From a virus, in IMG/VR virus record IMGVR_UViG_3300009528_000460, positions 1-36,572 of that record: 36,572 nucleotides of DNA. The stretch is one strand, 5' to 3'. Both the position numbers and the translations under genes were made by a program. The notes beneath the pieces are model-generated. The model had not been told where the DNA came from, did not search any database, and saw nothing but the letters and a program-made list of their open reading frames with translations. Positions 1-22,477 of the stretch are shown piece after piece. Every line of letters begins with the position of its first letter. The stretch's first letter is position 1.

Positions 1-1878
1 AGCCACTCCGATGCTTCCCTTGGTATTGATGACCTTGGCCCAAGACGGCACCCACCTGAGCGGCTTGCCCGAGTCGTTGACGATGATACACTCCCACCAG
101 CGGAACTCTTGGGAGTCTATGCTGTCTATCGCATCCACATAGAGTTCTCGATGTTCTGGACCAACTGGAATAATAACTGCGATCTGCGGCGGATCAAAGG
201 AAGAGACAGGAGCTTGCTTGCCCGAGTCAACGGCAGCCGGCGGCAGCGCCGTGCCTTGGCACCAGGGATACCACTTTGTCCAGTCCTGCTGTTGATTCAC
301 TCTGCTCATCGCGTCCTCGCGATTGCGATAAACCAGGGTATCCATCTGGGTGACCATCTCCGCTCGGAAGCCGTAAGAGGTCAGCCGCGTCCAGAAATCA
401 GCGTCCTCTGCTGTCTTCCAGCGCCTACGATAGCCACCGACGCATTCCCAGGCCTCCTTACGGAACATGGACGTGGAGGGTACGAGGTTGGCGGGACGCC
501 CATCTCCTGCCTTTCTGGTCAGCTGCCAGTCGGTGCGGAAGGCCATAGGCCAGCCAGAGTGCCAGCGCTTGCCGTCAGACTCGAGGAACTCCACGTTGCC
601 ATAGGCTATGTGAAGGTTCCTATCCTCATCCAGAGCCTTGGAGAGAATCTCCAGCGTCTCCTCCGGCAGCATGTTGTCGGCATCCAGCGGTATCATGTAC
701 TTACCCCTGGCCGCACCGATGCCAGTGTTGAGAGCGCCGGCGAGGTACTGGTTCTTCTCGTTGTGGATCACTCTGAATCGCTCATCCTTGGCCGCGTATT
801 CATCGGCGATCTTGCCGCAGCCATCGGGCGAGGCGTCATCCACTACCACGCACTCCCAATCCTGCAGGGTCTGGGCCTGGACGGAATCGAGTGCCTGCGG
901 AAGATATTGCTCAAGATTGTAGGCAGTGACGATGACGGACACGCGCGGCTTCTCGGCTCGCCAGTCATCCAGCACCCGGCGGTAGAGGTCGGCGTATTCC
1001 TTCGCTATATCCTTCCACTGGTAGCGTTCCTCTACAACCTCCCGTCCCCTACGGCCCAGGAGCTCCCTGTTCTTCAAGCAGTAGCGCAAGCCCTCCAAGA
1101 GATCATCATAATCGCCAGGAAGAGCAAGGTAGCCCGTCTCCTTGTGATCTATGATGTTCGATTGGCCTCCCCAATCCCATGCCAGGACAGGCACACCTGC
1201 GGCCATAGCCTCTAGCGTGCCGATGCCGAAAGTCTCTCGAGGCGTACAGAGATAAACGGCAGCGTCCCTGATAGCATGCTTCGCTTTCTCGTAGTTGAGC
1301 GCACCTGTGATCTGCAGGTTCCGCAACCGGCTGTCGCCATATGTAGAGATGAACGGTACGTCGGGAGCAAGTTTGGCCAGCGCATCCAGAGGCGTCACGT
1401 CGCAGACGGGATCGAGGCGCGTCTTGTTCCACAATACAAATCCGCGATTTCGGCCAGAAGGTTCAGGCCACTCGGCCAGGTCCACACCGTGACCGATGAC
1501 GGTTACGCGCCTCAGTGAATGCCGCCGTAGCGCCTGAGCAACCCACTCACTGGGAGCGGTGACAGCGTTTGCTAGTCGGATGGCTTCCACACACTTGGCG
1601 TTGGCCTTGTAGCACCAGCCAACCTTCCAGTCGAATTCGCTCCAATAGAGGCCATGGTTGTGGACAACGAGCGGCTTGTCAGAATGACGTTTTCGAATCT
1701 CGTCGGTGGATAGGATGTGACAGGCAATGAGTTCTGCCTCTTCCAACTCAACAACCTCGATGTCACAGGCGAGCAGATGCTTTCGCAGAGCGTCTACCAC
1801 GCGGCGCACACCTCCGTCGGCCTTATCTTCGCCGGCGAAGGAGGGGTGGATGTGAACCTTGATCCTACGCTGCGCCAT
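1..1878 (-). CDS. Multi-domain glycosyltransferase (GT4 + GT2 + GT2), partial
   Basis: The frame is open from an ATG at 1878 to the left edge, giving 626 residues with the C-terminus missing. Residues about 1-290 look like a GT4/GT-B glycosyltransferase (N-terminal VHIHPSF, then GVPVLAWDWGG and an E-rich C-terminal helix). Residues about 308-520 are a GT2/GT-A domain beginning VSVIVTAYN, with VVDDASPD and the metal-binding-like DADN. A second GT2 domain starts near residue 562 (IAVIIPVGPEHRELY) and is cut by the window edge. The start has a GGGAGATGG SD site and lies 15 bp after the repeat-protein gene. It probably transfers several sugars onto one acceptor, perhaps a virion glycan; the sugars cannot be read from sequence. 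Domain fusion is seen directly; the role is inferred. Confidence 0.85.
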   Translation of the reverse strand, partial: MAQRRIKVHIHPSFAGEDKADGGVRRVVDALRKHLLACDIEVVELEEAELIACHILSTDEIRKRHSDKPLVVHNHGLYWSEFDWKVGWCYKANAKCVEAIRLANAVTAPSEWVAQALRRHSLRRVTVIGHGVDLAEWPEPSGRNRGFVLWNKTRLDPVCDVTPLDALAKLAPDVPFISTYGDSRLRNLQITGALNYEKAKHAIRDAAVYLCTPRETFGIGTLEAMAAGVPVLAWDWGGQSNIIDHKETGYLALPGDYDDLLEGLRYCLKNRELLGRRGREVVEERYQWKDIAKEYADLYRRVLDDWRAEKPRVSVIVTAYNLEQYLPQALDSVQAQTLQDWECVVVDDASPDGCGKIADEYAAKDERFRVIHNEKNQYLAGALNTGIGAARGKYMIPLDADNMLPEETLEILSKALDEDRNLHIAYGNVEFLESDGKRWHSGWPMAFRTDWQLTRKAGDGRPANLVPSTSMFRKEAWECVGGYRRRWKTAEDADFWTRLTSYGFRAEMVTQMDTLVYRNREDAMSRVNQQQDWTKWYPWCQGTALPPAAVDSGKQAPVSSFDPPQIAVIIPVGPEHRELYVDAIDSIDSQEFRWWECIIVNDSGKPLRWVPSWAKVINTKGSIGVA

Positions 1879-1893
1879 CATTCCATCTCCCTG

Positions 1894-5221: not shown

Positions 5222-6085
5222 CTAACCTACGATCTCCACAGGCGCTCCACAGAGACTGGCATGATACTCCAGCGATGGATCCATGACCCACTGGCATGTC
5301 TGGAGGACCCCGTCGTGGGTGCGCCAGTCGAACACATGGCCGTTGGCACACCTGTAGGTAGCGAGGTTCTGCTCTTCGCTAGGATGCACGCCGGCGAGCG
5401 ATGGCCTGGGCTGATGGCCCTCCATTGTGTATATCCACTCCCAGGCGGTAGGCAGAGCCAAGGCTACGTCCGGGCCGGGTAGCGCTTGCACCTGCTCGTT
5501 GAAAAACCGCTCGCACTCGCCCACGGTGGTGTCCTCGGCAAACGGCCCATAAGCCTGCATGAAGCGCTCATGGATCATCCAGGGCCGCAGCGATGTGAAC
5601 ACACCGTAGCGCTCCAGCCGCAGAAGCCAGCCCTCCTCAAACATCTCCACGTTGCCGCGTATGTTCGGATGCGGCGGACCGAGCCTCACCAGACCGATGT
5701 CCGGGTGTTTGAGCAGGAGGGTTGCCCAGGGCTTCATGTCGAACAGCCACAGGAGTCCCCAGTCGTCCATCAGGAGCGCTGCCAGCGGAGAGTGGCGGAA
5801 GGCTTCCCGCAGTCCTGCGTTCAGGCTAGCGCCAATTCCATGCCTCTCCTGGCGGCTAAATGTGACGGGGCCACGATCTCCCCACCACCAGGCTGGAGGC
5901 GACTTGGCGCTGACGGCGTACCCTGGCAGCGATGAGCCATCGTCTGCCACGTGAAGCCGCAGCTCGCCAGGATATCGGATTCGCTTCCGCCACTGGCGAA
6001 TAGAGTACTGCGCAGCGGCCTCCGTCGCCTCGCCGACTCCGCCGGCAGGAGCATACGTCGTCATCAGGATCGTGAGGGGCTCCAT
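5222..6085 (-). CDS. GT2-like glycosyltransferase with C-terminal zinc-knuckle tail
   Basis: The 287-residue protein begins with the GT2 opening LTILMTTYAPAGG, followed by LHVADDGSS near residue 45 and the likely metal-binding acidic pair in ALLMDDWGLL near residue 105. Residues about 230-287 form an added tail with C-x-x-x-H (CANGHVF), a lone Cys (QTCQW) and a late SLCG, resembling a zinc knuckle. The start overlaps the preceding methyltransferase stop by one base (TGATG), so translation is coupled. It is the last gene of the sugar island and lies 3 bp from the beta-propeller gene. Donor and acceptor are unknown; the zinc tail on a glycosyltransferase is unusual. Confidence 0.7.
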   Translation of the reverse strand: MEPLTILMTTYAPAGGVGEATEAAAQYSIRQWRKRIRYPGELRLHVADDGSSLPGYAVSAKSPPAWWWGDRGPVTFSRQERHGIGASLNAGLREAFRHSPLAALLMDDWGLLWLFDMKPWATLLLKHPDIGLVRLGPPHPNIRGNVEMFEEGWLLRLERYGVFTSLRPWMIHERFMQAYGPFAEDTTVGECERFFNEQVQALPGPDVALALPTAWEWIYTMEGHQPRPSLAGVHPSEEQNLATYRCANGHVFDWRTHDGVLQTCQWVMDPSLEYHASLCGAPVEIVG

Positions 6086-6690
6086 CAGGTTCGCTTCCCC
6101 TTCGCCTTCTTGATCTTCCTGCCTGCCCAGCCAAGCCCATGGATCTCCACCATCTCCAGACGCCCTGCAGCTACGACCTCATCGATCGCCCGCTTGACGC
6201 CAGGCGAGGGATAATTAGGCACTCCCCAATCAGCAGGGTCGGCGTAGTTGTGTAGCCAGACAAGACCGCCCATGACGACCTTCGGCAGCCAAGCCTTCAG
6301 TTCGCCCTTGGTCGTCTTGTAGGTGTGATCGGTATCTATCATCAGCAGGTCAACGGAGTTGGCCTTGAACTCCTCGGCGGCCTCCGCCGAATCCGACAGG
6401 ATGCCCTGCCAGTCCGCGCGGCGACCGATATTCTTCGCCACCGCCTGTGACCACTGCAAGGTGTTGTGGTCGACAGTAGTCACCAGGATCTTGTCCGGCC
6501 TCGCACAGAGAGCTGACAGCGCGGTCGTCCCGCTCCCTGCCCCAAGGTCAACGACCGCCACAGGACGATACTTGGGCAACCTGCGCACAAGATCTTGGAT
6601 CAGATCGATATCCTCATGGATGAGGACGTAAGGATGCGCCGTACACAGCCTGTGTGCTGGGTCGTTGTTGTAATCCCCCTTGCGTACCAT
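6085..6690 (-). CDS. Class I SAM-dependent methyltransferase (Methyltransf_24-like)
   Basis: The 201-residue protein has a Rossmann core: motif I VVDLGAGSGTTAL near residues 46-58, the acidic strand-2 end VTTVDHNT, and motif VDLLMIDTDHTY followed by KGELKAWLPKVVMGGLVWLHNY, typical of the O-methyltransferase branch where the late Asp/His bind a metal or acceptor. The C-terminus is basic (KIKKAKGKRT). The gene is coupled to the downstream glycosyltransferase by a TGATG overlap. In this context methylation of a sugar is more likely than of a nucleic acid, but that is inference. Confidence 0.75.
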   Translation of the reverse strand: MVRKGDYNNDPAHRLCTAHPYVLIHEDIDLIQDLVRRLPKYRPVAVVDLGAGSGTTALSALCARPDKILVTTVDHNTLQWSQAVAKNIGRRADWQGILSDSAEAAEEFKANSVDLLMIDTDHTYKTTKGELKAWLPKVVMGGLVWLHNYADPADWGVPNYPSPGVKRAIDEVVAAGRLEMVEIHGLGWAGRKIKKAKGKRT

Positions 6691-6691
6691 T

Positions 6692-7507
6692 TTATGTGTC
6701 CTCCTTGCTTGCTTTCCATATCACCTCGCCATTGAGAAGCACAACATCGTAGTGAGGATTAGGACAGTTTGAGAGGTTCGGCTTCGAGAATGTCACCTTC
6801 TCTGCCATATCTGCCCACAAGGTTCTGGCCTCGGCAATGAGGTTCTCGTCACGGTCTACCCCATGAGCGACCATTCCTGCTGCAGCAGCCATTGCACAGA
6901 GGTCACCTTGCTTACACTCGAGGTCGAGAAGGGAGAGACCCTCCAATGGATTGCCTGGAGTCTCTCCGCCCAGGGCTACTACGACGGCGAGCCAGCGACT
7001 GATGATGCCCGAAGCGTCAGGCGGTTGTGTCAGCGAAGATACTTCTGCCAGGTTCAACCAGAAGTGATATTGGTCAGAGGTCTCTCGATAGTCAAGCATA
7101 GGTTCATCGAAGAAACGTGACATCTTGAAGTCAACCAGCATCGGGCGATCGTCCCGAATGATGATGTTCCCTTTCTTCCCTTTTGAAGCCAACCTAATCC
7201 ATGGATCGCCATGACTGATACGATGCTGCTGCAACGTCCAAAGAAGACGCACGCCGTTGCGCCGCAAAGCCTCGAGGTTCTTGACAGGTTGATTCACGCC
7301 GAGGTCCTCTTCAACGATGTAATCGTCCCCCTCTTCGAGGAGTTGAGGAGCAACACCAGTGCCGCTGAGTTCTCTAAGCATCCGTGCCTCGTTGTGGACA
7401 CCGTTTATGCATCTGGGACTAGCCTTCTCCCCGCCGTAGGCCCACTTTTTGACGATCCCGTTCTCTCTGTAGACGGTAAGTCCTTGATGGCCTCCGATGA
7501 TGCCCAT
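6692..7507 (-). CDS. Kinase-fold protein fused to a truncated methyltransferase-like domain
   Basis: Residues about 8-140 show the order of elements of RIO/Bud32/lipopolysaccharide-kinase-type small kinases: a Lys in IVKKW, the alpha-C Glu in NEARMLREL, hinge IVEEDLG, catalytic-loop HGDP with GNIII, and VDFKMSRF where DFG reads DFK. Residues about 190-271 resemble the first half of a SAM methyltransferase: LLDLECKQGDL, GVDRDENL, then YDVVLLNGEV, ending early without the C-terminal strands. The gene ends just before a complete methyltransferase at 6690. It may phosphorylate a sugar or glycan intermediate; a pseudokinase role is also possible because of DFK. The fusion is directly visible; activity is inferred. 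Confidence 0.6.
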   Translation of the reverse strand: MGIIGGHQGLTVYRENGIVKKWAYGGEKASPRCINGVHNEARMLRELSGTGVAPQLLEEGDDYIVEEDLGVNQPVKNLEALRRNGVRLLWTLQQHRISHGDPWIRLASKGKKGNIIIRDDRPMLVDFKMSRFFDEPMLDYRETSDQYHFWLNLAEVSSLTQPPDASGIISRWLAVVVALGGETPGNPLEGLSLLDLECKQGDLCAMAAAAGMVAHGVDRDENLIAEARTLWADMAEKVTFSKPNLSNCPNPHYDVVLLNGEVIWKASKEDT

Positions 7508-7514
7508 GCTTTAC

Positions 7515-8006
7515 CTACTTGTTCACCAGTTCCGCTATTGCCCGTCCCTGCATAAATCTCCGAGCAAGTGATAACAGAAGGATGTAATCAGGATAAGCAC
7601 CGGGCCGAGGATCTCCTCGGGTAGCCCTACCGAAATCAACGAGGCAGGGCACATTGGCTCTGACTACGATGTTAGAGCTGGACTCCAGATCATTGTGATG
7701 GACCCCGATCTTCCTCATATCCTCCAGTGCCGTGCAAGCGTGGCGCATGACGACCTCAAGGTTGGTGATTTCTTCGCCATCGCCGAGGTCTTCCATAAGG
7801 ATGTAGTTCGAGCCGACCTCGTAGACGTCAGGGAAGCAGATACTCTCGGCCAACTCCTGGAGGATATCCGCCTCGAACTTGATCCCTGCTGGCCTACCTC
7901 CTTGACAGTATTTCAAGAATCGTCCCTTTCCATCCCTGTATGCCCGCGACTGTGTACCTCTGTAATTCGTGGGTAGACAAGGAGAGAGGATGTCTTCAGG
8001 CTTCAT
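7515..8006 (-). CDS. Small RIO/Bud32-like kinase-fold protein
   Basis: The protein is 163 residues from ATG 8006, preferred over GTG 8009 on SD spacing (GGGAG); both overlap the preceding stop. Visible kinase elements are a Lys (RFLKY), Glu in FEADILQEL, hinge YILMEDLG, catalytic loop GVHHNDLESSSNIVV and an intact DFG (LVDFGRATR). The length matches minimal Bud32/RIO-type kinases rather than full Ser/Thr kinases. It is a diverged paralogue of the N-terminal half of its neighbour at 6692-7507 and retains the intact DFG that the neighbour lacks. The substrate is unknown; island context suggests a glycan or sugar. Confidence 0.65.
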   Translation of the reverse strand: MKPEDILSPCLPTNYRGTQSRAYRDGKGRFLKYCQGGRPAGIKFEADILQELAESICFPDVYEVGSNYILMEDLGDGEEITNLEVVMRHACTALEDMRKIGVHHNDLESSSNIVVRANVPCLVDFGRATRGDPRPGAYPDYILLLSLARRFMQGRAIAELVNK

Positions 8007-8719
8007 CACACCACTCCCTCTGCAATGGGGAGGCCTGCTTTGCTAGTGTCTATGCCTTCGATGCTGGCCTTCTCTCCGCCGATGTGGGCAAAAGCATCTC
8101 CGCGAGGGTTGATGAGACCAACCGGCCAGGCAACGCCGTACCGTGCCGCTGGAAACGCTGCCACAAGATGCTCCGTGTATCCTTGCTCCATATACTCAGG
8201 CCATGGGCCAACTGCCCTCTCCCACTCCACAGTCTCCAGCCTCGGGCCTCCGGCCCACACGTGCCTCTCTGCGCTGTCAGGATCAAGAGCCAGCCAATGA
8301 TGAAAGTGGGCAAGGACGAACTTTGCACGCAATTCCTGTGTCAGACCGATGTAGCCCATGCGCACACAGCCGAAAGTCCCGTCTCGAAGTACCGCCGCTA
8401 TGGGATCAAGGTTTAGCTCTCGCAGCAACTCCCAGTCATCCTCCAGAGGGAGTATGAGATCGGCGATCCTGTGAGTGATCTGCGTCGAGGCATTGTAGTT
8501 GCCTCCATATCCAGAGCGCTCGCTGTTGCTCATGCTGACATTGTCGCCAAATAGCGAGCGAGCGAGTTCAATCAGCTCGTCACGATAGTCCTGCGAGGAG
8601 CCGTCGTCAGCGATGTGCATCCAGAACTCCTCGGACGCCTTTAGGTTCTCGGCTACACTCGAGATGCACCTCTTCGCCACCTCAAGACGATCATACGTCA
8701 GGACGGTGATCACGATCAC
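8006..8719 (-). CDS. GT2 family glycosyltransferase
   Basis: The protein is 237 residues from GTG 8719, chosen because it forms a GTGA overlap with the upstream stop and has GGGAGG eight bases upstream; an earlier start in frame is less likely. It begins IVITVLTYDRLEVAKRCISS, then HIADDGSS, a GYGGNYN loop, and LILPLEDDWELL as the probable nucleotide-sugar metal site. The C-terminal half keeps a conserved tail (WAGGPRLETVEWERAVGPWPEYM). The architecture resembles the protein at 5222-6085 but without the zinc tail. Acceptor and sugar are unknown. Confidence 0.75.
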   Translation of the reverse strand: MIVITVLTYDRLEVAKRCISSVAENLKASEEFWMHIADDGSSQDYRDELIELARSLFGDNVSMSNSERSGYGGNYNASTQITHRIADLILPLEDDWELLRELNLDPIAAVLRDGTFGCVRMGYIGLTQELRAKFVLAHFHHWLALDPDSAERHVWAGGPRLETVEWERAVGPWPEYMEQGYTEHLVAAFPAARYGVAWPVGLINPRGDAFAHIGGEKASIEGIDTSKAGLPIAEGVV

Positions 8720-9852
8720 TTCGACACCTCCCAGGTCTGGAGCCAACACCCTTCGTATTCTGGGTGAGCCTGGATGATAGCCTTGGCATAGTTCCAGGCG
8801 GTGACTACACAGATGTCAGAGGGAGGTCGAGCAGGCCAGGGCACGATTGGCCAGCCTACGCCGGGCACAAAGCGGCCTGCACGCAAGGGCGAGTCATCAA
8901 TCACAACCGCGAACTCCAGTTCGGGAAGCTGATTGAACCACACCGTCGCTCGGCCTGCCGCTCCATAGGCTATTGGCATCTTAACACCGCTCAGTTCCCC
9001 GTAGAGAGTCGTCTCACGTCGCTGGCTGTAGGACTGGCGGAGAAGATCGAACGTCTCAACTCGACTGGTTAGCGGCTTGCCTATCACTCCTCTAAGGAAG
9101 CCCATCCGCAGCAAGCCTCCGTGCAAAGGCAGTCGCTTCACTTCGAGCACACTGAATCCGTGGCGTACCACAACGCGGGACAAGGAGCGAGCGCTGTACT
9201 CGGCCTTGTGCTCGTGGTAGACGGTATCCCACTGCCCAGTGCGCAACGTCGCGTCCAAGTCGTGAACCTCAACCCAGAACTCTCCGCCGGGCACCAATGC
9301 CTGAGCAGCAGCCTCAACAACATTGTCGATTGCGGTCATATGAGCGAGGCAGTTAGAGGCCAACACCAAGTTGAATTCTTGGCGTAATCCCAAGGCCGTT
9401 CCGAACGGCTCATTGATCAGTTCATACCTAACATCTCCGTTCTGGAGAGCAACAGCGGCTACGTCGCTCGGGTCTACACCCACGCAGTCCCAGCTACAGG
9501 GCAACTGGCGCAGCAGAACGCCGTCGTTGCATCCTATCTCTAGCACCTGCTGCCACCTGTGCCCAAACCTTAGTCGAAGGAACCTGGCGTATTTCTTGAA
9601 GTGATCAACCAGACTCTCCACAGCCGATGACGCATAGCAATACTTGCTGTATAAGACCTCATCCCCCACATCCTCCGCAACCTGTACCAGTTCGCAGCGG
9701 TCACACTGTAGCCATGTCAGCGGCAGCCTCTCGGCGGCGAGCGCCTGCTTTGCGCTGTCGGCGAACGCGCCGGCCAGAGGCATCGGCTCCATGGCGAAGA
9801 CTTCCCTCTCCAAAGGAGCACCGCAGCCACGACACTCATCCAGCAACCGCAT
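8716..9852 (-). CDS. Sugar C-methyltransferase-like protein (zinc N-terminus, SAM core, C-terminal domain)
   Basis: The protein is 378 residues from ATG 9852, picked for its TGATG overlap and GGGGAAG upstream; an in-frame ATG at 9870 exists. CRGC at residues 7-10 and CDRC at 50-53 form the zinc module typical of the TylC3/NovU sugar C-methyltransferase family (Methyltransf_13). A SAM motif VLEIGCNDGVLL follows at 103-114, then EFWVEVHDLD and HEHKAEYS, which corresponds to the family's YHEH active-site region. The C-terminal domain has YGAAGRATVWFNQL and IDDSP, as in the Methyltransf_14 fold. The family methylates keto-sugars bound to dTDP, consistent with the dehydratase and reductase genes upstream in this island. 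Confidence 0.8.
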   Translation of the reverse strand: MRLLDECRGCGAPLEREVFAMEPMPLAGAFADSAKQALAAERLPLTWLQCDRCELVQVAEDVGDEVLYSKYCYASSAVESLVDHFKKYARFLRLRFGHRWQQVLEIGCNDGVLLRQLPCSWDCVGVDPSDVAAVALQNGDVRYELINEPFGTALGLRQEFNLVLASNCLAHMTAIDNVVEAAAQALVPGGEFWVEVHDLDATLRTGQWDTVYHEHKAEYSARSLSRVVVRHGFSVLEVKRLPLHGGLLRMGFLRGVIGKPLTSRVETFDLLRQSYSQRRETTLYGELSGVKMPIAYGAAGRATVWFNQLPELEFAVVIDDSPLRAGRFVPGVGWPIVPWPARPPSDICVVTAWNYAKAIIQAHPEYEGCWLQTWEVSK

Positions 9853-10577
9853 CACTCGTATCTTCCCCATTCAGGCTGCTTCCATTCTCGAGTCAGATAA
9901 TCGCGGGTAGGTAAGATAATGCCTTGCCAATGAGCGCCCTTTGATCCCGTATCGCTGTCGTAATGCGGCCTGCAATTGTAGAGGAGCATCCCTCTGCCGA
10001 CTCCGACGATTCTCCCAGCCTCGCCCGAGTGACCTATCAAGACAGAAAGGAGCGCGGCGTCGGGGGCACCTGAAGCCGACTCTGGCGCGAAACCTCCGCA
10101 CCTCCGCCACAGGCTCTTCGTGACCATCGCCGCGTTACAGGGCTCGAATTGCTTGTCGTCTTCACGGCCATCGAGGTATTGAACCCCAACGAAATAGTAG
10201 GTTAGATCGCGAGCGTCTGGTTCTTCCTTCTCATAAGCGTCCAGGCAGCGCTCAAGGCATTCGGGATGCAGGAGGTCGTCCGCGCCGAGCATGAACACAA
10301 GCTCACTCTTGGCCAGCGCCACGCCGAAGTTGAAAGCATCACCCACGCCAACCCGCCAAGGAGTGCGCCAAATACGGCAACCCGCGAGCGGCCCGCTATC
10401 TACTTTCCAACTGCCATCGCCTAGCGGAAAAGCGTCGCCTAGCGGCAGCCCAGCCATATCATCAATGAGCAGAATCTCATCCGCCTCGCGCGTCTGGGCG
10501 CGCACGCTCGCCAGGCATTCCTCCAACCATTGCTGGTCAGTGGAACGTGGCCCGACAGGAATAGCGACGGTGATCAC
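9852..10577 (-). CDS. GT2 glycosyltransferase, tandem paralogue A
   Basis: The protein is 241 residues from GTG 10577, with GGAGG at good spacing and a GTGA overlap. GT-A signatures are ITVAIPVGP, SVRAQTREADEILLIDDMA and the DxD-like FMLGADDLLHPECLE. The C-terminus (LTREWKQPEWGRYE) is nearly identical to that of the adjacent gene at 10574-11260, and the core motifs correspond throughout, so the two arose by duplication. Divergence elsewhere suggests distinct acceptor or donor use. It sits mid-operon between the paralogue and the C-methyltransferase. Confidence 0.75.
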   Translation of the reverse strand: MITVAIPVGPRSTDQQWLEECLASVRAQTREADEILLIDDMAGLPLGDAFPLGDGSWKVDSGPLAGCRIWRTPWRVGVGDAFNFGVALAKSELVFMLGADDLLHPECLERCLDAYEKEEPDARDLTYYFVGVQYLDGREDDKQFEPCNAAMVTKSLWRRCGGFAPESASGAPDAALLSVLIGHSGEAGRIVGVGRGMLLYNCRPHYDSDTGSKGAHWQGIILPTRDYLTREWKQPEWGRYE

Positions 10578-11260
10578 TCGTACCTCCCCCAGTTCGGCTG
10601 CTCCCATTCCCGGGTCACAAGATCGCGGACAGTATGGATTACTCCTAACCAAGTTCCCCTACCCGCTGAGTCTTGCTCAGGATGCATGCGCACGTTACAG
10701 AGTGGCACACCTTGTTTCACATGATACAAATTGCCGCTCCCTTTCTTACCATATAGAATTGAGATGAGGATAGAATCAGGTGATGCCTCCGCAGCAACTG
10801 GGAATCCCCCCATGTGACGCCACAATCCCTTCGTAACCATCGCGGCAATGCTAGGCAGATCCTGAATCGGCGGGTCTGGTAGCGGAGGCGCATATCCTTC
10901 TTCACACTCAAATCGAATAGTCACGTGATAATAGCCAAGCGGGTCGCAGTGCCGCCGTTCATATTCCTCCACGCAGGCTGCTAGGCATTCCGGCTCGAGC
11001 CAGTCGTCAGCGCAAAGGATGTAGACCAGATCGTTCTTGGCTAAGGACACACCACAGTTAATTGCCCCTGCCGTCCCTAGCCGCCAAGGGGCCTGCCAGA
11101 TGCGACAGCCCTCTCTGTCGTCCAGCGCCGCCATATCATCGATCAGCAGGATCTCGTCCACCGGGTACGTCTGTGATCGGACGCTCTGCACACACTCGTC
11201 GAGCCACTTTTGATGGTGCGGCTCGGGGCCAACCGGGATGACAACCGTCACGCCGCGCAT
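10574..11260 (-). CDS. GT2 glycosyltransferase, tandem paralogue B
   Basis: The 228-residue protein starts at ATG 11260 with AAGGAG upstream; a GTG at 11251 overlapping the preceding stop is an alternative. It opens VTVVIPVGPEPHHQKWLDE, continues VDEILLIDDMA, and has YILCADDWLEPECLA as the putative metal-binding site. The tail VTREWEQPNWGRYE matches paralogue A. It shares a 13-bp overlap with the RmlD-like gene before it. Specificity is unknown. Confidence 0.75.
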   Translation of the reverse strand: MRGVTVVIPVGPEPHHQKWLDECVQSVRSQTYPVDEILLIDDMAALDDREGCRIWQAPWRLGTAGAINCGVSLAKNDLVYILCADDWLEPECLAACVEEYERRHCDPLGYYHVTIRFECEEGYAPPLPDPPIQDLPSIAAMVTKGLWRHMGGFPVAAEASPDSILISILYGKKGSGNLYHVKQGVPLCNVRMHPEQDSAGRGTWLGVIHTVRDLVTREWEQPNWGRYE

Positions 11261-12015
11261 GCAGCTATCTCCTTGGCGTAGGCCGTGAGAACTTCCTCCA
11301 CAGCAGGCAACTCCTCATCTGGCTTCAGCGCCCGGTGCATATGAGGGAACTCCTTGTGGACAACGGTCACAGGCAACCCCAATTCCCGAACGAACATCTC
11401 CACCATCCAACCCTTTGTGGTCACTTGGGGCGATGCTACGTGCACCACGCCAACCCTGCTGCCCCCGGCCAGCTCTACCAGCTTTGCAGCCATCACGTCC
11501 GCCGTCGTACCTGTCCATTCGGCGTTGTCCCAAGCCTCCACCTCGCCCTCAGCATGCAGGAGCCAGCGCAGGAAGCCTGCTTCCTTGCTAATGAAGGAGC
11601 CTCTGACGTTCAGCACATGGCCTGCCTCAACCTCGCCAGCCAGTTTGGTGCGACCGTAGAGATCATCGGGATCAGGCGAGTCATCCGAGGCGTGGAGAAC
11701 TTTCCTGCGGCCACTGAACACACAGTCGGTGCTCATGTGGACGACGCGAATCCCCCGTAGAGCGAGGCAGGCAAGGATGTGCGGGCCGAGAGCATTCGTT
11801 TTCACCATGTCTATCGAGAATGCATCGAGAAGTAGCCCTGCGCAGTTGATGATAGCGTCCGGCCCTGCAACCTGTGCAGTCCTCACGACGATCCCCAGAT
11901 CCTCGATAGGGCACTCCCAATGCGTAGTGGACAGGAGCTCGTGGCCCCTGGCTGTGACCGCCTTGGCTACGTGGGAGCCGAGAACACCGTTCGCGCCAGT
12001 GACCCAGATCTTCAT
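11248..12015 (-). CDS. RmlD-like NDP-4-keto-sugar reductase (extended SDR)
   Basis: The 255-residue protein starts at ATG 12015 with TTGGAGG upstream. It shows the SDR cofactor loop GANGVLG (residues 7-13), INCAG, the MSTDCVFSG segment and the YGRTK catalytic Tyr/Lys at about 120 and 124. STDxVFxG and the Y-G-x-x-K pair match dTDP-4-dehydrorhamnose reductase. Length is slightly short of the usual 290-300 residues. Together with the dehydratase at 12663-13595 it could convert an NDP-sugar to a deoxysugar used by neighbouring transferases. Exact stereochemistry cannot be read from sequence. Confidence 0.75.
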   Translation of the reverse strand: MKIWVTGANGVLGSHVAKAVTARGHELLSTTHWECPIEDLGIVVRTAQVAGPDAIINCAGLLLDAFSIDMVKTNALGPHILACLALRGIRVVHMSTDCVFSGRRKVLHASDDSPDPDDLYGRTKLAGEVEAGHVLNVRGSFISKEAGFLRWLLHAEGEVEAWDNAEWTGTTADVMAAKLVELAGGSRVGVVHVASPQVTTKGWMVEMFVRELGLPVTVVHKEFPHMHRALKPDEELPAVEEVLTAYAKEIAACAA

Positions 12016-12662: not shown

Positions 12663-13595
12663 TCAAACCTTCTCCGCGTCCTCGATCAGTTCTCGTAGCT
12701 CCACCACGGAAATCATATACCTAGGAGTATGGGAGGCTATGGTAAAGGCTTCCTCAGTGGCAGGACTGCCTGGCGGCAACAATTCGACGAAAGTCCCGTG
12801 TCGACGAGTGCGGACTGACTCCTCGTGATGAAGCAGCAACTCATGTCTCTTCTCGCCGGGACGCTCTCCGATGACTTCGACTGCCACGTCCTTGTAAGTG
12901 GCAGCCCGAGCAGTATCTAAAAGGTTCGCTGCTCGCGCGGGAGGGATAAGGATGCTGCCCGAATCTAGGTTGGTCAAGGCGCGTACGATCACAGCTATCG
13001 CCTCATCCACACCCATCCAGAACCTGGTCATGTGAGGGTTGGTTATCTTGACTTTGCCGAACTCCTTCTCTTGCTTGCGGAACAGGGGGATTACAGAGCC
13101 TGTGCTGCCAACGATGTTACCATAGCGGACGCAGACAAACTCTGGCTCCTTGTGGTACTGCTGCTCCTCCTGGAATAATCTCTCCATGATTGCTTTCGTC
13201 ATGCCGTAGGTATTGACCGGCTGGACGGCCTTATCTGTGGAGATGCCTACGACTCGCTTCACCCCACAGCAGCGAGCAGCTTCCATCACGTTGCTAGAAC
13301 CATTCACATTCACAGATATGCACTCGGCGGCATTGAATTCCGCCTCGGGGATATACTTCACCGCAGCGGCATGTACCACCAGTTCGTGTCCATCCATTGC
13401 AACACGCATCCGAGGCAAATCTCGGACGTCGCCCAGGATGTAGCGGGCGAAGGGATAGCGTTTGCGGGCCTGCTCCTGCAGGGTCTCATCCCGAGAGTAG
13501 ACGGTGACCCCCCAATCGAGGTCTCCTCTTTCCACCTGGCGGAGAATCGCCTTGCCTAGAAATCCCGACCCGCCAGTCACAAAGACCTTCGGCAT
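12663..13595 (-). CDS. NDP-sugar 4,6-dehydratase (FlaA1/CapD/PseB-like, Polysacc_synt_2)
   Basis: The protein is 310 residues from ATG 13595, chosen because AGGAGGG lies four bases upstream and the product then begins MPKVFVTGGSGFLG; an upstream extension of 42 residues lacks family similarity. The NAD(P)-binding loop is at 8-14, and the hallmark STDKAVQPVNTYGMTK holds the catalytic Tyr130/Lys134. RYGNIVGSTGSVIPLF and MTRFWM also match the PseB/CapD group acting on UDP-GlcNAc or a related NDP-hexose. It is the first sugar gene after the capsid gene and probably supplies the 4-keto-6-deoxy intermediate. The exact product (5-inverting or retaining) is undetermined. Confidence 0.85.
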   Translation of the reverse strand: MPKVFVTGGSGFLGKAILRQVERGDLDWGVTVYSRDETLQEQARKRYPFARYILGDVRDLPRMRVAMDGHELVVHAAAVKYIPEAEFNAAECISVNVNGSSNVMEAARCCGVKRVVGISTDKAVQPVNTYGMTKAIMERLFQEEQQYHKEPEFVCVRYGNIVGSTGSVIPLFRKQEKEFGKVKITNPHMTRFWMGVDEAIAVIVRALTNLDSGSILIPPARAANLLDTARAATYKDVAVEVIGERPGEKRHELLLHHEESVRTRRHGTFVELLPPGSPATEEAFTIASHTPRYMISVVELRELIEDAEKV

Positions 13596-13609
13596 ACAAC
13601 CCTCCTGGG

Positions 13610-13645
13610 GAGAGGGCAGAGCGAAAGGAGAAACCCTGCCCTCTC
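13610..13645 (-). terminator. Hairpin with 10-bp perfect stem between capsid and dehydratase genes
   Basis: Arms GAGAGGGCAG (13610-13619) and CTGCCCTCTC (13636-13645) pair perfectly around a 16-nt loop. It lies just upstream of the SD of the dehydratase and downstream of the capsid gene in the direction of transcription. No U-tract follows, so it is more likely a transcript-stabilising or attenuating structure than a full terminator. Confidence 0.4.
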
Positions 13646-13652
13646 TCACTTC

Positions 13653-13683
13653 GTCCAGATGGGGGTGCGACCACCTCCTGGAC
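13653..13683 (-). terminator. Second hairpin downstream of the capsid gene
   Basis: Outer arms GTCCAG (13653-13658) and CTGGAC (13678-13683) enclose an inner GGGGTG/CACCTC-like stem with a tiny loop. It starts about 64 bp past the capsid stop and precedes the 10-bp hairpin. The 151-bp gap between capsid and dehydratase holds these two structures and no convincing gene. Partial termination would favour capsid mRNA over the sugar genes; that is inference. Confidence 0.4.
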
Positions 13684-13746
13684 TTCTCGCTATTCGGTTG
13701 TTCGGTGATGAGCCCGCGCACACATGCCCACCACCAAGCTAGTCAG

Positions 13747-15228
13747 CTACGGCATTTGCTGCGAAGGCTGCCAGAGCGAGTAGTAGCTCGGGCCTGGCCG
13801 GGTCTTGGGACCGCCGTCTACGAAGTACGGGTCGCTCGGGAACGGCTCGGCCTCGTGCTGCAGCGGACAGTACAAGACGTTCTGGATACGACCAGCTAGC
13901 CACGGTGTTCTCATCACCAGACGCGGCTCGATCTTGGCCTGGAACTCGATGCACTGGTTCTTCTGACGCGGCCACACCAGGAACGCGCCATCGACCCTAG
14001 CCAGGATCATGTTGCTGCCAGCCAGAGCAGCGCTGAGAGACGGGTTGGCGTAGTCAGCGTACTCGAGGTAGGTGACGGCCCGACCACCGACTACGCTCAT
14101 TGGGACCAGGTAGAGGTCACTGGAGAAGCACCCGGCGGGGACGTTGGCGTTGTCGATGTCAGCGTCCTCGTCGATGCCGTCGTCCAGAATGACCTCGATC
14201 TTCTCACCGTCGACGAGAAGATACCTGCCTGCCCGCATGGCGTCGCGGAACTCGACCTGGTGGGTGGCCTCGATGGTCACCATTTGGTTAGCAGCAGTCT
14301 GGCAGCGGTAAGTCAGGTAGGAGCATGGCCAAACCGCCGTCAGCTCCCAGAACAGAGTGGGCCGCATGACAAAAACCCAACGCACAGGCATCACGCCCTG
14401 GCGCTCCGCCTTGTCCTTGAGGAAGTGGTACATCGAGGAGACAAAGTCCACGATGCGGACGCCAACAGTAGCCAGATCGATCCGACCATAGCTGAAGTCC
14501 TTGAGATCGGAATCGATGCTGGCACAGCGAGCACCGTTCTGGGCATCGATGTAGCCAGTGGAGATCAGGCGGTCAAAGCCCGTCATCTCCATGTAGCCAC
14601 CGCCGGCGCTGTTGTTGGCGGGATTGCCCTGCCACAACTGCACCGACAGGAGCCGATGAAAGGCTATGCCGAGCTCCCAGAACTTCTGGGTGATCTCGTT
14701 CTTCAGGATGTCCGCTGGCATCGCAGGACTCCCTGGGCCAGCGGCAAAGACTCCTGACTGGTGAATCGGCGAGCCTACCAAGGTCAGATCGATGGGATCT
14801 GCCCTGTCGTTCAACTTCCCCAGCCGATTCAGCTCCAGCTCGGGCGTGGCCCGCTCGTAACGGCCAAAGACAGATGTGATAAGACACACCTTCTTCAGAC
14901 CAGCCACTGGAGCGTCCTCGCAGACGAGGTTCTTCTCGTTGCCGCTGATGTCCTGCACTCCCGTGAGGACCGCGAAGGTCGGGTCGGTGTACGGACTCGC
15001 CTTTGTTGGCAGTTGGCTTAGGATGCCGAGATTGCCGACAACCGTGTGGAAGACGGACTGGTCGACGCCGGGGAAGCTCAACACTCCGCCGGGGCCATGG
15101 ATATAACCAAACCCCTGGGGAAAGCCAGAGGCATCGTGCTTCTGACCAATACCGAATCGATCCGCCTTCTGCTTTTCCATGACGGGCGCTAGCGCCTCAG
15201 CCAGCGCCTCGATAACCTTAGTCTCCAT
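13747..15228 (-). CDS. Major capsid protein (HK97-fold type)
   Basis: The 493-residue protein starts at ATG 15228 behind AGGAGGAAA, a strong SD fitting the most abundant virion protein. It follows the protease/scaffold gene by 29 bp in the canonical head-gene order. A helical N-terminus (METKVIEALAEALAPVMEKQ) precedes a mixed region with GLKKVCLITSVFGRYERATPE, and the C-terminus has PRQKNQCIEFQAKIEPRLVMRTPWLAGRIQNV, typical of capsid P-domain ends. No catalytic motif is seen. I base the call on position, size, SD strength and general resemblance to uncultivated-phage capsids rather than a diagnostic motif. Confidence 0.75.
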   Translation of the reverse strand: METKVIEALAEALAPVMEKQKADRFGIGQKHDASGFPQGFGYIHGPGGVLSFPGVDQSVFHTVVGNLGILSQLPTKASPYTDPTFAVLTGVQDISGNEKNLVCEDAPVAGLKKVCLITSVFGRYERATPELELNRLGKLNDRADPIDLTLVGSPIHQSGVFAAGPGSPAMPADILKNEITQKFWELGIAFHRLLSVQLWQGNPANNSAGGGYMEMTGFDRLISTGYIDAQNGARCASIDSDLKDFSYGRIDLATVGVRIVDFVSSMYHFLKDKAERQGVMPVRWVFVMRPTLFWELTAVWPCSYLTYRCQTAANQMVTIEATHQVEFRDAMRAGRYLLVDGEKIEVILDDGIDEDADIDNANVPAGCFSSDLYLVPMSVVGGRAVTYLEYADYANPSLSAALAGSNMILARVDGAFLVWPRQKNQCIEFQAKIEPRLVMRTPWLAGRIQNVLYCPLQHEAEPFPSDPYFVDGGPKTRPGPSYYSLWQPSQQMP

Positions 15229-18390: not shown

Positions 18391-18812
18391 GAGTCCTATG
18401 CTGTGGTGATCGCAAGTGGAAGGATCGGGAACTCATTCGCCACGCCCTCTCAGGGATCGGCCTGTATCCGGTCATCATCGAAGGCGAGGCCGAAGGAGCT
18501 GACCTTCTGGCCCGGCAGGTCGCTGAGCAGATCGGCTTCGAGGTCATGCCCTTCCCCGCGCAGTGGACTCGCTATAGTCGATCAGCTGGCCCAATTCGCA
18601 ATCAGCAGATGCTAAACGAGGGCAAGCCCGACCTGGTGATAGCCTTCCACGACAACCTGCTGGGACGCAGCAAGGGGACGAAGGACATGGTCCTGAGGGC
18701 CGTCCTCGCAGGAGTTCCTGTAAAGGTAGTGCGACACGAGAGAAAGAAGCGTACCCCAAAGGAGGAGCTCCAGTTCGAGAACCAATTTGAGGATCCTGAC
18801 GATCAGGAATAG
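18387..18812 (+). CDS. DUF2493/YspA-type SLOG family protein
   Basis: The 141-residue protein starts at ATG 18387, coupled by ATGA. The sequence is unmistakable for DUF2493: MRVLCCGDRKWKD at the start, EGEAEGADLLARQVAEQIG, FPAQW and SAGPIRNQQML, then PDLVIAFH, SKGTKDMV and AGVPVKVV. SLOG folds bind nucleotides or nucleotide-like ligands, and relatives are frequent in phages and defence contexts. The basic, acidic-tailed C-terminus (residues 115-141) is extra. Its neighbour is the Mini-A gene. The ligand and role are unknown. Confidence 0.85.
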   Translation: MRVLCCGDRKWKDRELIRHALSGIGLYPVIIEGEAEGADLLARQVAEQIGFEVMPFPAQWTRYSRSAGPIRNQQMLNEGKPDLVIAFHDNLLGRSKGTKDMVLRAVLAGVPVKVVRHERKKRTPKEELQFENQFEDPDDQE

Positions 18813-18814
18813 GG

Positions 18815-18832
18815 GGCTTTACGAAAGGAGGA
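18815..18832 (+). repeat. 18-nt repeat, copy 2 (RBS module)
   Basis: An identical copy of GGCTTTACGAAAGGAGGA lies directly before the Mini-A start and supplies its SD. No -10 with 17-nt spacing follows; TAAAAT occurs at 19 nt. Confidence 0.8.
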
Positions 18833-18837
18833 GTGAG

Positions 18838-19743
18838 ATGCCTAAAATCGCTTATAAAGATCATCGATTCGGCGCGAAGGCTCTAGCAACCATCCAACAG
18901 GCCAACGATATCATCGAGGAGTATGCGGCTCAGGGCTTTGACCTCACACTCAGACAGCTCTACTATCAATTCGTGGCGCGTGCCTTCATCCCAAACCTCG
19001 ATCGCGAGTACACCAAACTTGGCTCCATCATCAACGACGCCCGGCTCGCTGGACTCGTTGACTGGAATGCGATCCAAGACCGCACTCGTGGTCTGAAAGA
19101 CTTGAGCCACTGGAGCTCGCCCGACGACATCATCGATTCCGCAGCGAGGTCTTACCGCCGTGATCTCTGGGCTCGTCAGACCTATAGACCAGAAGTGTGG
19201 ATCGAGAAGGATGCATTGACAGGAGTCATCGCTGGCGTGTGCTACGAATACGACGTGCCCTACTTCTCTTGCCGTGGCTACACCTCCCAGTCCGAGATGT
19301 GGGTTGCGGCTCGACGCTTGCAGAAGTGGGCACGCACCGGGCAGCTACCAATCATCCTCCATTTCGGCGATCACGACCCCTCCGGCTTGGACATGACCCG
19401 CGACATTGACGAGCGCCTAGCGCTATTCAGTGGACCAATCATCGAGGTACGACGTCTGGCCTTGAACATGGATCAGGTGAAGCTCTACAACCCACCGCCT
19501 AACCCAGCCAAGATAACAGACACCCGCTTCGAAGACTACGCTGTTCAGTACGGCGAGGAGTCGTGGGAGTTGGACTCGATGGAGCCGCGTGTTCTGGTCG
19601 CCCTCATCCGAGATCAGATAGAAGAGCTTCGAGATGAGGAGCAATGGGACATCGACATCAAAGAGACCAAGCACCAAAAGGTTCTACTCCACACTGCCGC
19701 CAAGCGCTGGACAGAGGTAGAGACGTTTCTAGGAACAGAGTAG
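18838..19743 (+). CDS. Topo VI-A/Spo11-like protein (Mini-A type)
   Basis: The 301-residue protein starts at ATG 18838 after AAAGGAGGA. The N-terminal winged-helix region has TLRQLYYQFVAR, with Arg39 and tandem Tyr42/43 as in the catalytic-Tyr motif of Topo VI-A/Spo11. A Toprim domain follows: the Glu of WIEKDALTG (E123) and the D-x-D of HFGDHDPSGLD (D178, D180). No B subunit with an ATPase is encoded nearby. Stand-alone A subunits of this kind in mobile elements are known as Mini-A, with unknown function; DNA nicking, cleavage or anti-defence roles are possible. The C-terminal third (residues 200-301) is acidic and ends the rightward operon. Confidence 0.8.
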   Translation: MPKIAYKDHRFGAKALATIQQANDIIEEYAAQGFDLTLRQLYYQFVARAFIPNLDREYTKLGSIINDARLAGLVDWNAIQDRTRGLKDLSHWSSPDDIIDSAARSYRRDLWARQTYRPEVWIEKDALTGVIAGVCYEYDVPYFSCRGYTSQSEMWVAARRLQKWARTGQLPIILHFGDHDPSGLDMTRDIDERLALFSGPIIEVRRLALNMDQVKLYNPPPNPAKITDTRFEDYAVQYGEESWELDSMEPRVLVALIRDQIEELRDEEQWDIDIKETKHQKVLLHTAAKRWTEVETFLGTE

Positions 19744-20048: not shown

Positions 20049-20386
20049 ACTTCCTCTCCTACATCCTCTACGCTCCGCCAGCCCAGCCGGGCGAACCTTT
20101 CCCGCTGCCTGGGCTCCTTGCTCTTGAAGCCCATGACGTCGCCTGCATATTTCGTCTTGTTGCCCGCCTCTACAACGAGATCCGTGCCCACCCTCTTTGG
20201 GCCGTCCTTGGTCCAGGTGCGGCCCAGGTGGCCCGTCCGTCGATAGGCCGTCTGCTGTGACGGATAGGTAGCCAGACGGCTGACAAAATCGAGGCCTGTG
20301 CCATTCATCTCACGGACGACGTTCCCAGCGGCGAAACGAGTGATTGGCCTCTTGGGAATGATAGGCTCGAAGAATGGTCTAGCCAT
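20000..20386 (-). CDS. Putative head-tail/neck protein (HK97 gp10-like)
   Basis: The 128-residue protein contains LATYPSQQTAYRRTGHLGRTW and GTDLVVEAGNKTKYAGDVMGF, a pattern seen in small neck or tail-completion proteins that follow MuF genes in many phages. A C-terminal amphipathic helix ends ERALQGR. It overlaps the MuF stop by one base and is followed by the overlapping Com-like gene. The call depends on position and a remembered pattern, not a diagnostic motif. Confidence 0.55.
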   Translation of the reverse strand: MARPFFEPIIPKRPITRFAAGNVVREMNGTGLDFVSRLATYPSQQTAYRRTGHLGRTWTKDGPKRVGTDLVVEAGNKTKYAGDVMGFKSKEPRQRERFARLGWRSVEDVGEEVWREHRSAIERALQGR

Positions 20387-21135
20387 TATGTCATAGGCTC
20401 CGTCAAAGGCTTACCTGCCACAACTGGCGCGATCCAGCAGCGGCAGCGGGTATGAAGGGGAGGACCTGGATCGTTGACGGAATAGCGATTGCCTTCTCGC
20501 GCCTCACACTCTGGACAGACACGCTCGTCCATCACACTGCGCCACTCCACCTCCGTCACGCCTGCGTCGCGATAGGCGATCCTATTACCCTCGGCGAAGA
20601 GGCGAGTGACCTCCGTAGAGGCAATCATCTCCGCACGCCGGGCTCCGAAGAGGGGAGTAATGCCCTTGCGCAGCGAGGAAAGGGGAGCGCCAGTCTCGAT
20701 GTTGGTGGCGATGGCCGTGCGCAAACCCTCCCGTGTGGAGAGTTCCATCCGGCCCCACCACTCACTGCTGTAGGTGCGCGTGTAATCCAGAACCTGCTGA
20801 TTGACGAGCTCGAAGTCGACGCCAAGGCCCAGCGCCTCTGCCTGGGTGACACCTTCCAGGAGGAGGTCACTGACTCCTCCGCTCGTCTCGCCAGCCCAAG
20901 CAGCTTCCTCGCCAGCCCAGAACTCGGGGTCGTCGGGGACATCGGGGAGAGCCTTGCGTCGGCGAGCCTCCTTCTGGATCTTTTTCCAGACACTCCTCTC
21001 CATGCGGCCCAACGCTCGCTGGAGGATGCGGGCGAACTTGGCTTGCGCAGCCTCCCAGTCCGCGTCCCAGGGGCCAGGCTTCCGCCTACGCTTCGTAGAT
21101 CTCGGAGAGGTCACGAAAGGGTGCGCCAGGCGCAT
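20386..21135 (-). CDS. MuF-like minor head protein
   Basis: The protein is 249 residues from ATG 21135, selected for AAGGAGGCC right before it; it overlaps the portal gene by 50 bp. The C-terminal MuF domain is clear: STEVTRLFAEGNRIAYRDAG, EWRSVMDERVCPECEAREG and the zinc/Cys end PPLHTRCRCWIAPV (about residues 170-235). The N-terminal two-thirds is helical and charged. MuF proteins sit with the portal and help DNA packaging or ejection; some carry toxin domains, but none is evident here. Confidence 0.85.
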   Translation of the reverse strand: MRLAHPFVTSPRSTKRRRKPGPWDADWEAAQAKFARILQRALGRMERSVWKKIQKEARRRKALPDVPDDPEFWAGEEAAWAGETSGGVSDLLLEGVTQAEALGLGVDFELVNQQVLDYTRTYSSEWWGRMELSTREGLRTAIATNIETGAPLSSLRKGITPLFGARRAEMIASTEVTRLFAEGNRIAYRDAGVTEVEWRSVMDERVCPECEAREGNRYSVNDPGPPLHTRCRCWIAPVVAGKPLTEPMT

Positions 21136-22477
21136 CGGCCTCCTTCCCCTCCACCCGTTCCTCGTCGGTGACAGTGACCAGAGGAGTGATGTCCTCACCA
21201 CCCATCATCTCAAAGACAGGCTTGGAAATGTCTCCCCTGTCCACGGCGATCTGGCGGGCAGCCTGTGGAGTGATCTCGCCAGACTCAATCTGGAACTTGC
21301 GCGTCTCGGCCCTGATCTTCCCAATCTTGGCCGCGTCTTCCTCCGCCGCCAGGTCCATCTCCACAAAGCCGAACTGGACACCGCTCGGCAGAATCTTGTG
21401 ATTCAGGGTATGGCTGAGGAGCTTGCGGAAGATGGCCGGCCCCTTGCCCCTGGACTTCATGTGAAGGACCTCGGACTGGGTGGATGTGCCGAGGTTGCCG
21501 CCGGGCAGCGGCGCGAAGTCCTGGTAGTCACTAAGGAAGGCCATTGCGATGATGGTGATGTATATCTTGATGGCCTTCTCCTCGTCCCAGCCATCGGGCA
21601 TGGAGGCGAGCTCCAGGGTCTTAATGTCCACCCTGGCGTCGGGCCGAGTGACAGGCACTACCAGGGGCTCGATATACTTCAGCATCCCCTGAGCGTCGGC
21701 GTTTGCCATCATCTTGGCCAGAGCAGTTTGGATCTGAGTAGCCGTCACTCCCTGAATGAGATGCAGCGCTCGGGCGAAGCGTCCGCCCGTCTTCTCCTCC
21801 TTGTAGATGGTGACGTTGCGGATGACCTGAGCGGCTCGGAGCATGCGGGTCAAAGCGCAGAGCTGAATGCCCGGCGGCCTCTCCTGTGGCGCAGGCATCT
21901 CGGCCAGGGTGGAAACCTGATACCACGCCAACCGATGTCTCTTCCCCAGACGATCCGTGTAGACTACAGGATACTCGGGGTTGCCCGTATGCTGACACCT
22001 AGCCGCTGGCAGGTGGTTGAGGCCAAGAAGCGCAGCGCTTGGGCTGTCGCCTGCCCGCACCGTCTCGAGGAATGCTCCGTTGTCCTGGGTGTAAAGATCA
22101 ATGCTAAGCTTGGCGGTGAGATTCTCCCAACCTTCGCCCATATCGGCATTGTCGAAGATGTCCTGAACCTTCGCCACGACCTTCCCCATGCCTGTGAGCC
22201 GCCAGGAGAAGCCGATGTTGCGAGCCACCATCATGCCCAGAGCGGACAGGAAGTAGGACTCGTTCGGATAGAATGCCCGCAGCTGCTGGTCGCGTAGCTG
22301 CGGCCGGGAGCCCCAGGGCTGCATCTCATCCGCCGCTCGCGCCACAAACCACAGCAGCGAGGAGTCCAGGGAGCCAACAGCATCGGCCCCCTCTGCCGGC
22401 GCTACCTCCGGCTCGATGACAGATCGCTCTACCGCCTGCGGCGATACTTGCTTGTCTCCGTCGCGTTTATTCGCCAT
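21086..22477 (-). CDS. Portal protein
   Basis: The 463-residue protein lies between terminase and MuF in canonical order. It has a helical stem and wing-like middle, including FYPNESYFLSALGMMVARN, NGAFLETVR, HLPAARCQHTGNPEYPVVYT and LSDYQDFAPLPGGNLGTSTQ, typical of portal N-terminal and stem domains. The acidic C-terminal region (EERVEGKEADAPG) overlaps the MuF start. It forms the dodecameric channel at the capsid vertex in related phages. No catalytic residues are expected. Confidence 0.85.
   Translation of the reverse strand: MANKRDGDKQVSPQAVERSVIEPEVAPAEGADAVGSLDSSLLWFVARAADEMQPWGSRPQLRDQQLRAFYPNESYFLSALGMMVARNIGFSWRLTGMGKVVAKVQDIFDNADMGEGWENLTAKLSIDLYTQDNGAFLETVRAGDSPSAALLGLNHLPAARCQHTGNPEYPVVYTDRLGKRHRLAWYQVSTLAEMPAPQERPPGIQLCALTRMLRAAQVIRNVTIYKEEKTGGRFARALHLIQGVTATQIQTALAKMMANADAQGMLKYIEPLVVPVTRPDARVDIKTLELASMPDGWDEEKAIKIYITIIAMAFLSDYQDFAPLPGGNLGTSTQSEVLHMKSRGKGPAIFRKLLSHTLNHKILPSGVQFGFVEMDLAAEEDAAKIGKIRAETRKFQIESGEITPQAARQIAVDRGDISKPVFEMMGGEDITPLVTVTDEERVEGKEADAPGAPFRDLSEIYEA

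What the first reader, a model, noticed from the sequence alone, without database searches (positions are those of the whole stretch)
6692..8006. Two adjacent kinase-fold proteins, one fused to half a methyltransferase
Both proteins keep Lys, alpha-C Glu, catalytic-loop H-x-D...N and a DFG/DFK segment in RIO/Bud32-like order. The longer one continues into a truncated SAM-methyltransferase-like domain and ends just before a complete methyltransferase gene. I know of no described phage glycan pathway with this composition. Phospho-methyl sugar modification or a pseudokinase scaffold are possibilities.
Basis: partly seen in the sequence, partly recalled or inferred. Interest (0 to 1): 0.7.

Follow-up and report, generated by a model that had tools for sequence, protein, structure and literature searches.

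The report
Phage kinase–methyltransferase fusion, truncated here
This phage carries a shortened copy of a previously unrecognised phage enzyme family that joins a small kinase to a methyltransferase, and whose intact members in related phages look able to add a phosphate to a phage-made sugar chain and then methylate that phosphate, as the bacterial O-antigen capping enzyme WbdD does.

Summary
On the minus strand, 7515-8006 encodes a 163-aa small kinase (P0002) and 6692-7507 a 271-aa kinase joined to half a class I methyltransferase (P0001). Both keep Lys, αC-Glu, HxD, Asn and DFG/DFK.

Neighbour-guided searches of IMG/VR found the intact version: kinase–methyltransferase fusions of about 320-370 aa in 13 contigs (12 distinct proteins), in the same capsid-linked glycan cluster. 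The window's P0001 is a C-terminally deleted member. It lacks the last ~84 residues and has lost the first SAM-motif Gly, while the kinase keeps its catalytic residues. P0002 is a kinase-only relative. One phage (L121) carries kinase and methyltransferase as separate genes.

An AlphaFold model of an intact homologue (pLDDT 91.5, pTM 0.90) shows both folds. WbdD is the best PDB match by profile (E 2e-11) and by Foldseek. WbdD's kinase D351/N356/D369 and its phosphate-binding methyltransferase R203 align with conserved family residues. The domain order is reversed and no coiled coil follows.

Best reading: a phage family that phosphorylates a glycan and then methylates the phosphate. In this window the methyltransferase half is a relic, so at most phosphorylation remains. 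The chemistry is inferred, not shown.

The parts
6692..7507 (-). P0001, 271 aa: kinase domain (about residues 1-183), C-terminally deleted class I methyltransferase relic (186-258), and a 13-aa tail whose last codons overlap the ribosome-binding site of the next gene
7515..8006 (-). P0002, 163 aa: stand-alone small kinase, kinase-only relative of the same family
6085..6690 (-). P0003, Methyltransf_24-type methyltransferase, a different family from the fused domain; starts just after the P0001 stop
8006..8749 (-). GT2-like glycosyltransferase (GTb), the marker used to find related phage clusters
5222..6085 (-). glycosyltransferase-like protein (GTa), similar to GTb
8716..9870 (-). sugar C-methyltransferase (Methyltransf_13/23/14 domains)
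9852..11260 (-). two similar GT2 glycosyltransferases (9852-10652 and 10574-11260)
11248..12015 (-). RmlD-like sugar reductase
12663..13721 (-). PseB/CapD-like nucleotide-sugar 4,6-dehydratase
1..1881 (-). GT4+GT2 two-domain glycosyltransferase at the far end of the cluster; runs off the window end
13747..15228 (-). putative major capsid protein (assigned by position; conserved in the related phages), anchor of the cluster

Best explanation
P0001 and P0002 derive from a phage family of bifunctional enzymes, here called KMT: an N-terminal small RIO/Bud32-like kinase fused to a C-terminal class I methyltransferase. Intact members most likely work like WbdD, but with the domains in reverse order. 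The kinase transfers the ATP gamma-phosphate to a hydroxyl of a sugar in the glycan made by the adjacent phage glycosyltransferases, and the methyltransferase then methylates that phosphate from SAM, giving a methyl-phosphate substituent or cap. In the window the methyltransferase half of P0001 has decayed (last ~84 residues gone, SAM-motif Gly lost) and P0002 never had, or has lost, its methyltransferase. This phage would therefore be expected to phosphorylate its glycan at most. Shown: homology, folds of an intact homologue, retained kinase residues, truncation, conserved cluster. Inferred: sugar acceptor, order of reactions, methyl-phosphate product, and virion glycan as target.
For: 13 contigs (12 distinct proteins) carry intact KMT; BLAST mapping of the cluster genes puts capsid, PseB-like and/or GT genes of the same cluster beside them. 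P0001 matches the family HMM 6-257 of 341. AlphaFold of an intact member: pLDDT 91.5, pTM 0.90. Best PDB profile hits are all WbdD, E 2e-11, both domains, next RIO2 at 2e-6; Foldseek's top four are WbdD. Profile comparison: methyltransferase domain against WbdD E 2e-12, against unrelated cluster methyltransferases no better than 0.009; kinase against WbdD kinase E 1e-6. WbdD D351/N356/D369 (catalytic and Mg ligands, PMC3482155) correspond to family D115/N120/D133 with identical spacing. WbdD R203, needed for phosphate methylation and absent from NodS and RebM (PMC3482155), aligns with an Arg invariant in all 14 methyltransferase domains. A split version, kinase and methyltransferase as separate nearby genes, exists in L121.
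Against: No biochemistry. The kinase domain is closer in sequence to RIO2 and Bud32, which are not sugar kinases, than to the WbdD kinase. By VIA-align WbdD (Z 17.7) is tied with many other class I methyltransferases, so the fold alone does not single out phosphate methylation. The WbdD His pair 132/133 is not kept as such: Pro/Ala/Ser, then Tyr/His. No coiled-coil ruler. The R203 match rests on a sequence alignment plus one end point of a structural range, and how common Arg is there in other methyltransferases was not surveyed.
Confidence: 0.5

Rival explanations
1. The kinase phosphorylates a protein (a virion or host protein) and the methyltransferase methylates an unrelated group; the fusion only couples two steps of virion modification.
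For: Kinase sequence closest to RIO2/Bud32; the cluster directly follows the capsid gene.
Against: Lies among glycosyltransferases and sugar enzymes in the mapped phages; methyltransferase closest to WbdD, with the phosphate-binding Arg position kept.
Confidence: 0.2
2. The kinase makes a sugar phosphate intermediate (a salvage or activation kinase, like Kdo or APH-type small-molecule kinases) for nucleotide-sugar synthesis, and the methyltransferase O-methylates the sugar rather than the phosphate.
For: Weak APH matches in 6 of 7 members; Kdo kinase among weak NCBIfam hits; sugar-nucleotide enzymes in the cluster.
Against: No nucleotidyltransferase was seen among the cluster genes tested; the fusion to a WbdD-like methyltransferase is not explained.
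Confidence: 0.15
3. The pathway modifies phage DNA (5-hydroxymethyluracil type) rather than a surface glycan.
For: The window encodes a 5-hmdU DNA kinase-like protein (PF18748) and a similar neighbour at its far end.
Against: Those genes lie more than 20 kb away; the KMT cluster is tied to the capsid gene and to nucleotide-sugar enzymes.
Confidence: 0.07
4. In this window the two genes are decaying relics with no present function; only the intact homologues matter. (This concerns the window copies and is compatible with the best explanation for the family.)
For: Methyltransferase half truncated, invariant G199 and E212 lost; P0002 sits on a long branch; lower GC than neighbours.
Against: Both reading frames are open, tightly packed with their neighbours, and keep all kinase catalytic residues.
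Confidence: 0.3

Closest known systems
WbdD of E. coli O9a (PDB 4AZS, 4AZW; PMC3482155)
   Same: Kinase plus class I methyltransferase in one chain, in a glycan pathway; catalytic D/N/D spacing of the kinase; methyltransferase Arg203 and Glu160 positions kept; best PDB match by profile and by Foldseek.
   Different: Reversed domain order (kinase first), no coiled-coil ruler, about 340 aa instead of 708, kinase nearer to RIO/Bud32, His132/133 not kept as a pair, phage-encoded; the window copy is truncated.
Klebsiella pneumoniae O7 terminator ORF6-N (PMC11231755)
   Same: Methyltransferase-kinase that leaves a methyl-phosphate on the glycan end; shows that such pairs arise with different kinase types.
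   Different: Methyltransferase first, AmiN-like kinase, coiled coil and GT modules attached; its sequence was not compared here.
Bud32 / RIO2 atypical kinases
   Same: Sequence type of the kinase domain (NCBIfam Bud32 hit in 10 of 12 members; PDB RIO2 E 2e-6).
   Different: Window proteins score far below the Bud32 curated cut-off; fused to a methyltransferase; in a glycan cluster.

Membership tests
WbdD-type kinase/methyltransferase | Kinase catalytic Asp351, Mg ligands Asn356 and Asp369 | tested here: met
   Family D115/N120/D133 at identical spacing; present in P0001 (D101, N114, D126) and P0002 (D106, N112, D124) with short length changes
WbdD-type kinase/methyltransferase | Complete class I SAM methyltransferase domain in the same chain | tested here: not met
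   Met by the intact family members; not met by the window's P0001, truncated after the fourth strand with G199E, nor by P0002
WbdD-type kinase/methyltransferase | Phosphate-binding Arg203 of the methyltransferase | tested here: not met
   Aligned Arg invariant in 14 of 14 methyltransferase domains of the phage family, but deleted in the window protein
WbdD-type kinase/methyltransferase | His132-His133 pair near the SAM methyl | tested here: inconclusive
   Second position Tyr or His in all intact members, first position Pro/Ala/Ser
WbdD-type kinase/methyltransferase | Methyltransferase-then-kinase order followed by a coiled-coil ruler | tested here: not met
   Order reversed and protein ends at the last methyltransferase strand
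WbdD-type kinase/methyltransferase | Phosphorylation then phosphate methylation of the terminal sugar | not testable with these tools
   needs enzymology and 31P NMR or mass spectrometry
Bud32 (TIGR03724) | Score above the curated family cut-off (125 bits) | tested here: not met
   24.1 bits for P0002, 13.8 for P0001; best homologue E 1e-7
RIO kinase (PF01163) | Pfam gathering score of 22 bits | tested here: not met
   21.9 bits for P0002, just under; no match for P0001 at E 1

The most novel reading that the evidence does not exclude
A phage lineage encodes its own methyl-phosphate glycan-capping enzyme, built in reverse domain order from a RIO/Bud32-like kinase and a WbdD-like phosphate methyltransferase, and uses it to finish glycans on its virion; phages such as this one have lost the methyltransferase half and would carry bare phosphate instead, so that the charge of the particle surface varies between relatives.
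Probability: 0.35. Interest if true: 0.68.

Novelty: new variant of a known kind. Interest (0 to 1): 0.55.

Why it matters
Methyl-phosphate capping by one kinase–methyltransferase chain is known from bacterial O-antigen assembly. A phage family with the same two activities in reverse order would point to independent assembly of the capping module and would give a concrete, testable chemistry for the little-understood glycan clusters that sit beside the capsid gene in many uncultured phages. Present annotation does not recognise the family: hits are to generic methyltransferase and kinase models near or below their cut-offs.

Tried and rejected
Single-sequence AlphaFold of P0001 gave pLDDT 32, useless. 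Pattern scans of viral contigs with P0001, P0002, both aligned, and the terminase found nothing; a fragment of the neighbouring glycosyltransferase did. tblastn against INPHARED phages found no relative of P0002 or of the L004 homologue, and only E 0.4-0.8 matches for P0001; plasmids gave nothing better than E 0.3. Two genome-contig scans, both with a [FY]FE[T/N]QLxGD-type pattern, confirmed no cellular relative; this does not exclude distant ones, and a profile survey of bacterial genomes was not possible. Idea that P0001's tail is the family's last strand after an internal deletion: p = 0.066, undecided. Idea that P0002 is a fresh tandem copy of P0001: the tree puts it nearer the L004 protein (88/83), but on a long branch, so undecided. 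Idea that the Methyltransf_24 gene supplies the missing half: no family match. VIA-align was dominated by the methyltransferase domain and does not rank kinases.

Full report
Setting. The window is an IMG/VR virus record of a tailed phage: terminase 22784-24370 and head morphogenesis 20386-21201, and a putative capsid gene 13747-15228, assigned by position and by conservation in related contigs. Downstream of it, on the minus strand, runs a glycan cluster: PseB/CapD-like dehydratase, RmlD-like reductase, GT2 glycosyltransferases, a C-methyltransferase, and at the far end a GT4+GT2 protein.

Observation. P0002 (163 aa) and P0001 (271 aa) both carry kinase motifs and align with each other at 34% over 116 aa. 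Their Pfam and NCBIfam hits are weak and below curated cut-offs.

Finding the intact family. Direct scans failed. A conserved fragment of the adjacent glycosyltransferase brought in related phages; alignments of it, of the KMT proteins and of the capsid protein then raised this to 119 loci, many from the same contigs. HMM search shows intact kinase–methyltransferase fusions in 13 contigs, 12 distinct proteins. BLAST mapping of cluster genes places them among capsid, PseB-like and GT genes; each flank was not annotated gene by gene. Among the 80 capsid-selected loci, 10 carry an intact KMT and one more is cut by the end of its stretch; this is a count of held stretches, some truncated, not a frequency in nature.

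What the window holds. P0001 matches the family from HMM position 6 to 257 of 341 (E 9e-66) and lacks the rest, including the [FY]FE[TN]QLxGDGPG motif and the final RTVW strand. No remnant remains in any frame. Of near-invariant family positions, the kinase part keeps 13 of 17 and the remaining methyltransferase part 7 of 10, with G199E in the SAM motif and E212A. The last P0001 codons overlap an AAGGAGG ahead of the next gene, which would fit a recombination joint. P0002 covers the kinase only. In L121 a kinase-only ORF and a methyltransferase-only ORF lie some 550 bases apart; that kinase lacks the catalytic-loop Asn.

Structure. AlphaFold of the L026 protein with 12 aligned sequences: pLDDT 91.5, pTM 0.90. 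Foldseek's first four PDB hits are WbdD, followed by class I methyltransferases and protein kinases. VIA-align covers chiefly residues 94-340: class I methyltransferases at Z about 16-18, WbdD 17.7 and tied with the leaders. The modelled protein is a homologue; the window proteins themselves were not modelled with an alignment.

Comparison with WbdD. The family profile finds WbdD first in the PDB, E 2e-11, in both domains, swapped in order; the kinase part alone scores better with RIO2. hhalign gives E 2e-12 for the methyltransferase and 1e-6 for the kinase against WbdD. For residue mapping a WbdD stretch was recalled from memory and then checked against the PDB chain, which matched it letter for letter. 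Kinase D351, N356 and D369 map to D115, N120 and D133 at the same spacing; methyltransferase R203 maps to an Arg present in all 14 domains, including the split L121 protein and the L045 protein. PMC3482155 reports that D351 mutation abolishes kinase activity, that R203A abolishes methylation, and that R203 is not conserved in NodS or RebM. PMC11231755 describes a second methyltransferase-kinase terminator whose kinase resembles AmiN rather than WbdD, so bacterial pairs of this kind already differ in their kinase.

Mechanism. Inferred: intact KMT phosphorylates a sugar of the glycan made by the neighbouring glycosyltransferases and then methylates the phosphate. In this phage only phosphorylation could remain. 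No phage example was found in the searches of the open-access library, which cannot prove absence.

Limits. No activity data; acceptor, product and target unknown; host unknown; cellular relatives not surveyed by profile; R203 correspondence not checked by superposition.

Noticed in passing
window 35390-36572 (-): A 5-hmdU DNA kinase-like protein (PF18748, E 3.5e-11) at 35390-35980, next to a second, visibly similar reading frame that runs off the window end; hints at modified DNA bases.
   Followed up: partly
window 28186-28809 and 29181-29648 (-): Orotidine 5'-phosphate decarboxylase family protein (E 1e-27) and a phosphoribosyltransferase-domain protein close together: possible phage pyrimidine synthesis genes.
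   Followed up: partly
window 18787-19743 (+): Protein matching phrog_6247 (DNA topoisomerase, E 3e-112), on the opposite strand to its neighbours.
   Followed up: no
L121:19622-20035 and 20587-21105: Kinase and methyltransferase of the KMT family as separate genes with an unrelated reading frame between them; the kinase lacks the catalytic-loop Asn.
   Followed up: partly
L045:19661-20371: Methyltransferase-only relative of the KMT family near the end of its contig.
   Followed up: partly
window 13747-15228 and L042-L121: Capsid protein with no match in INPHARED phages by tblastn, yet 160 confirmed relatives in IMG/VR, many with glycosyltransferase genes next to it: a large uncultured phage lineage.
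   Followed up: partly
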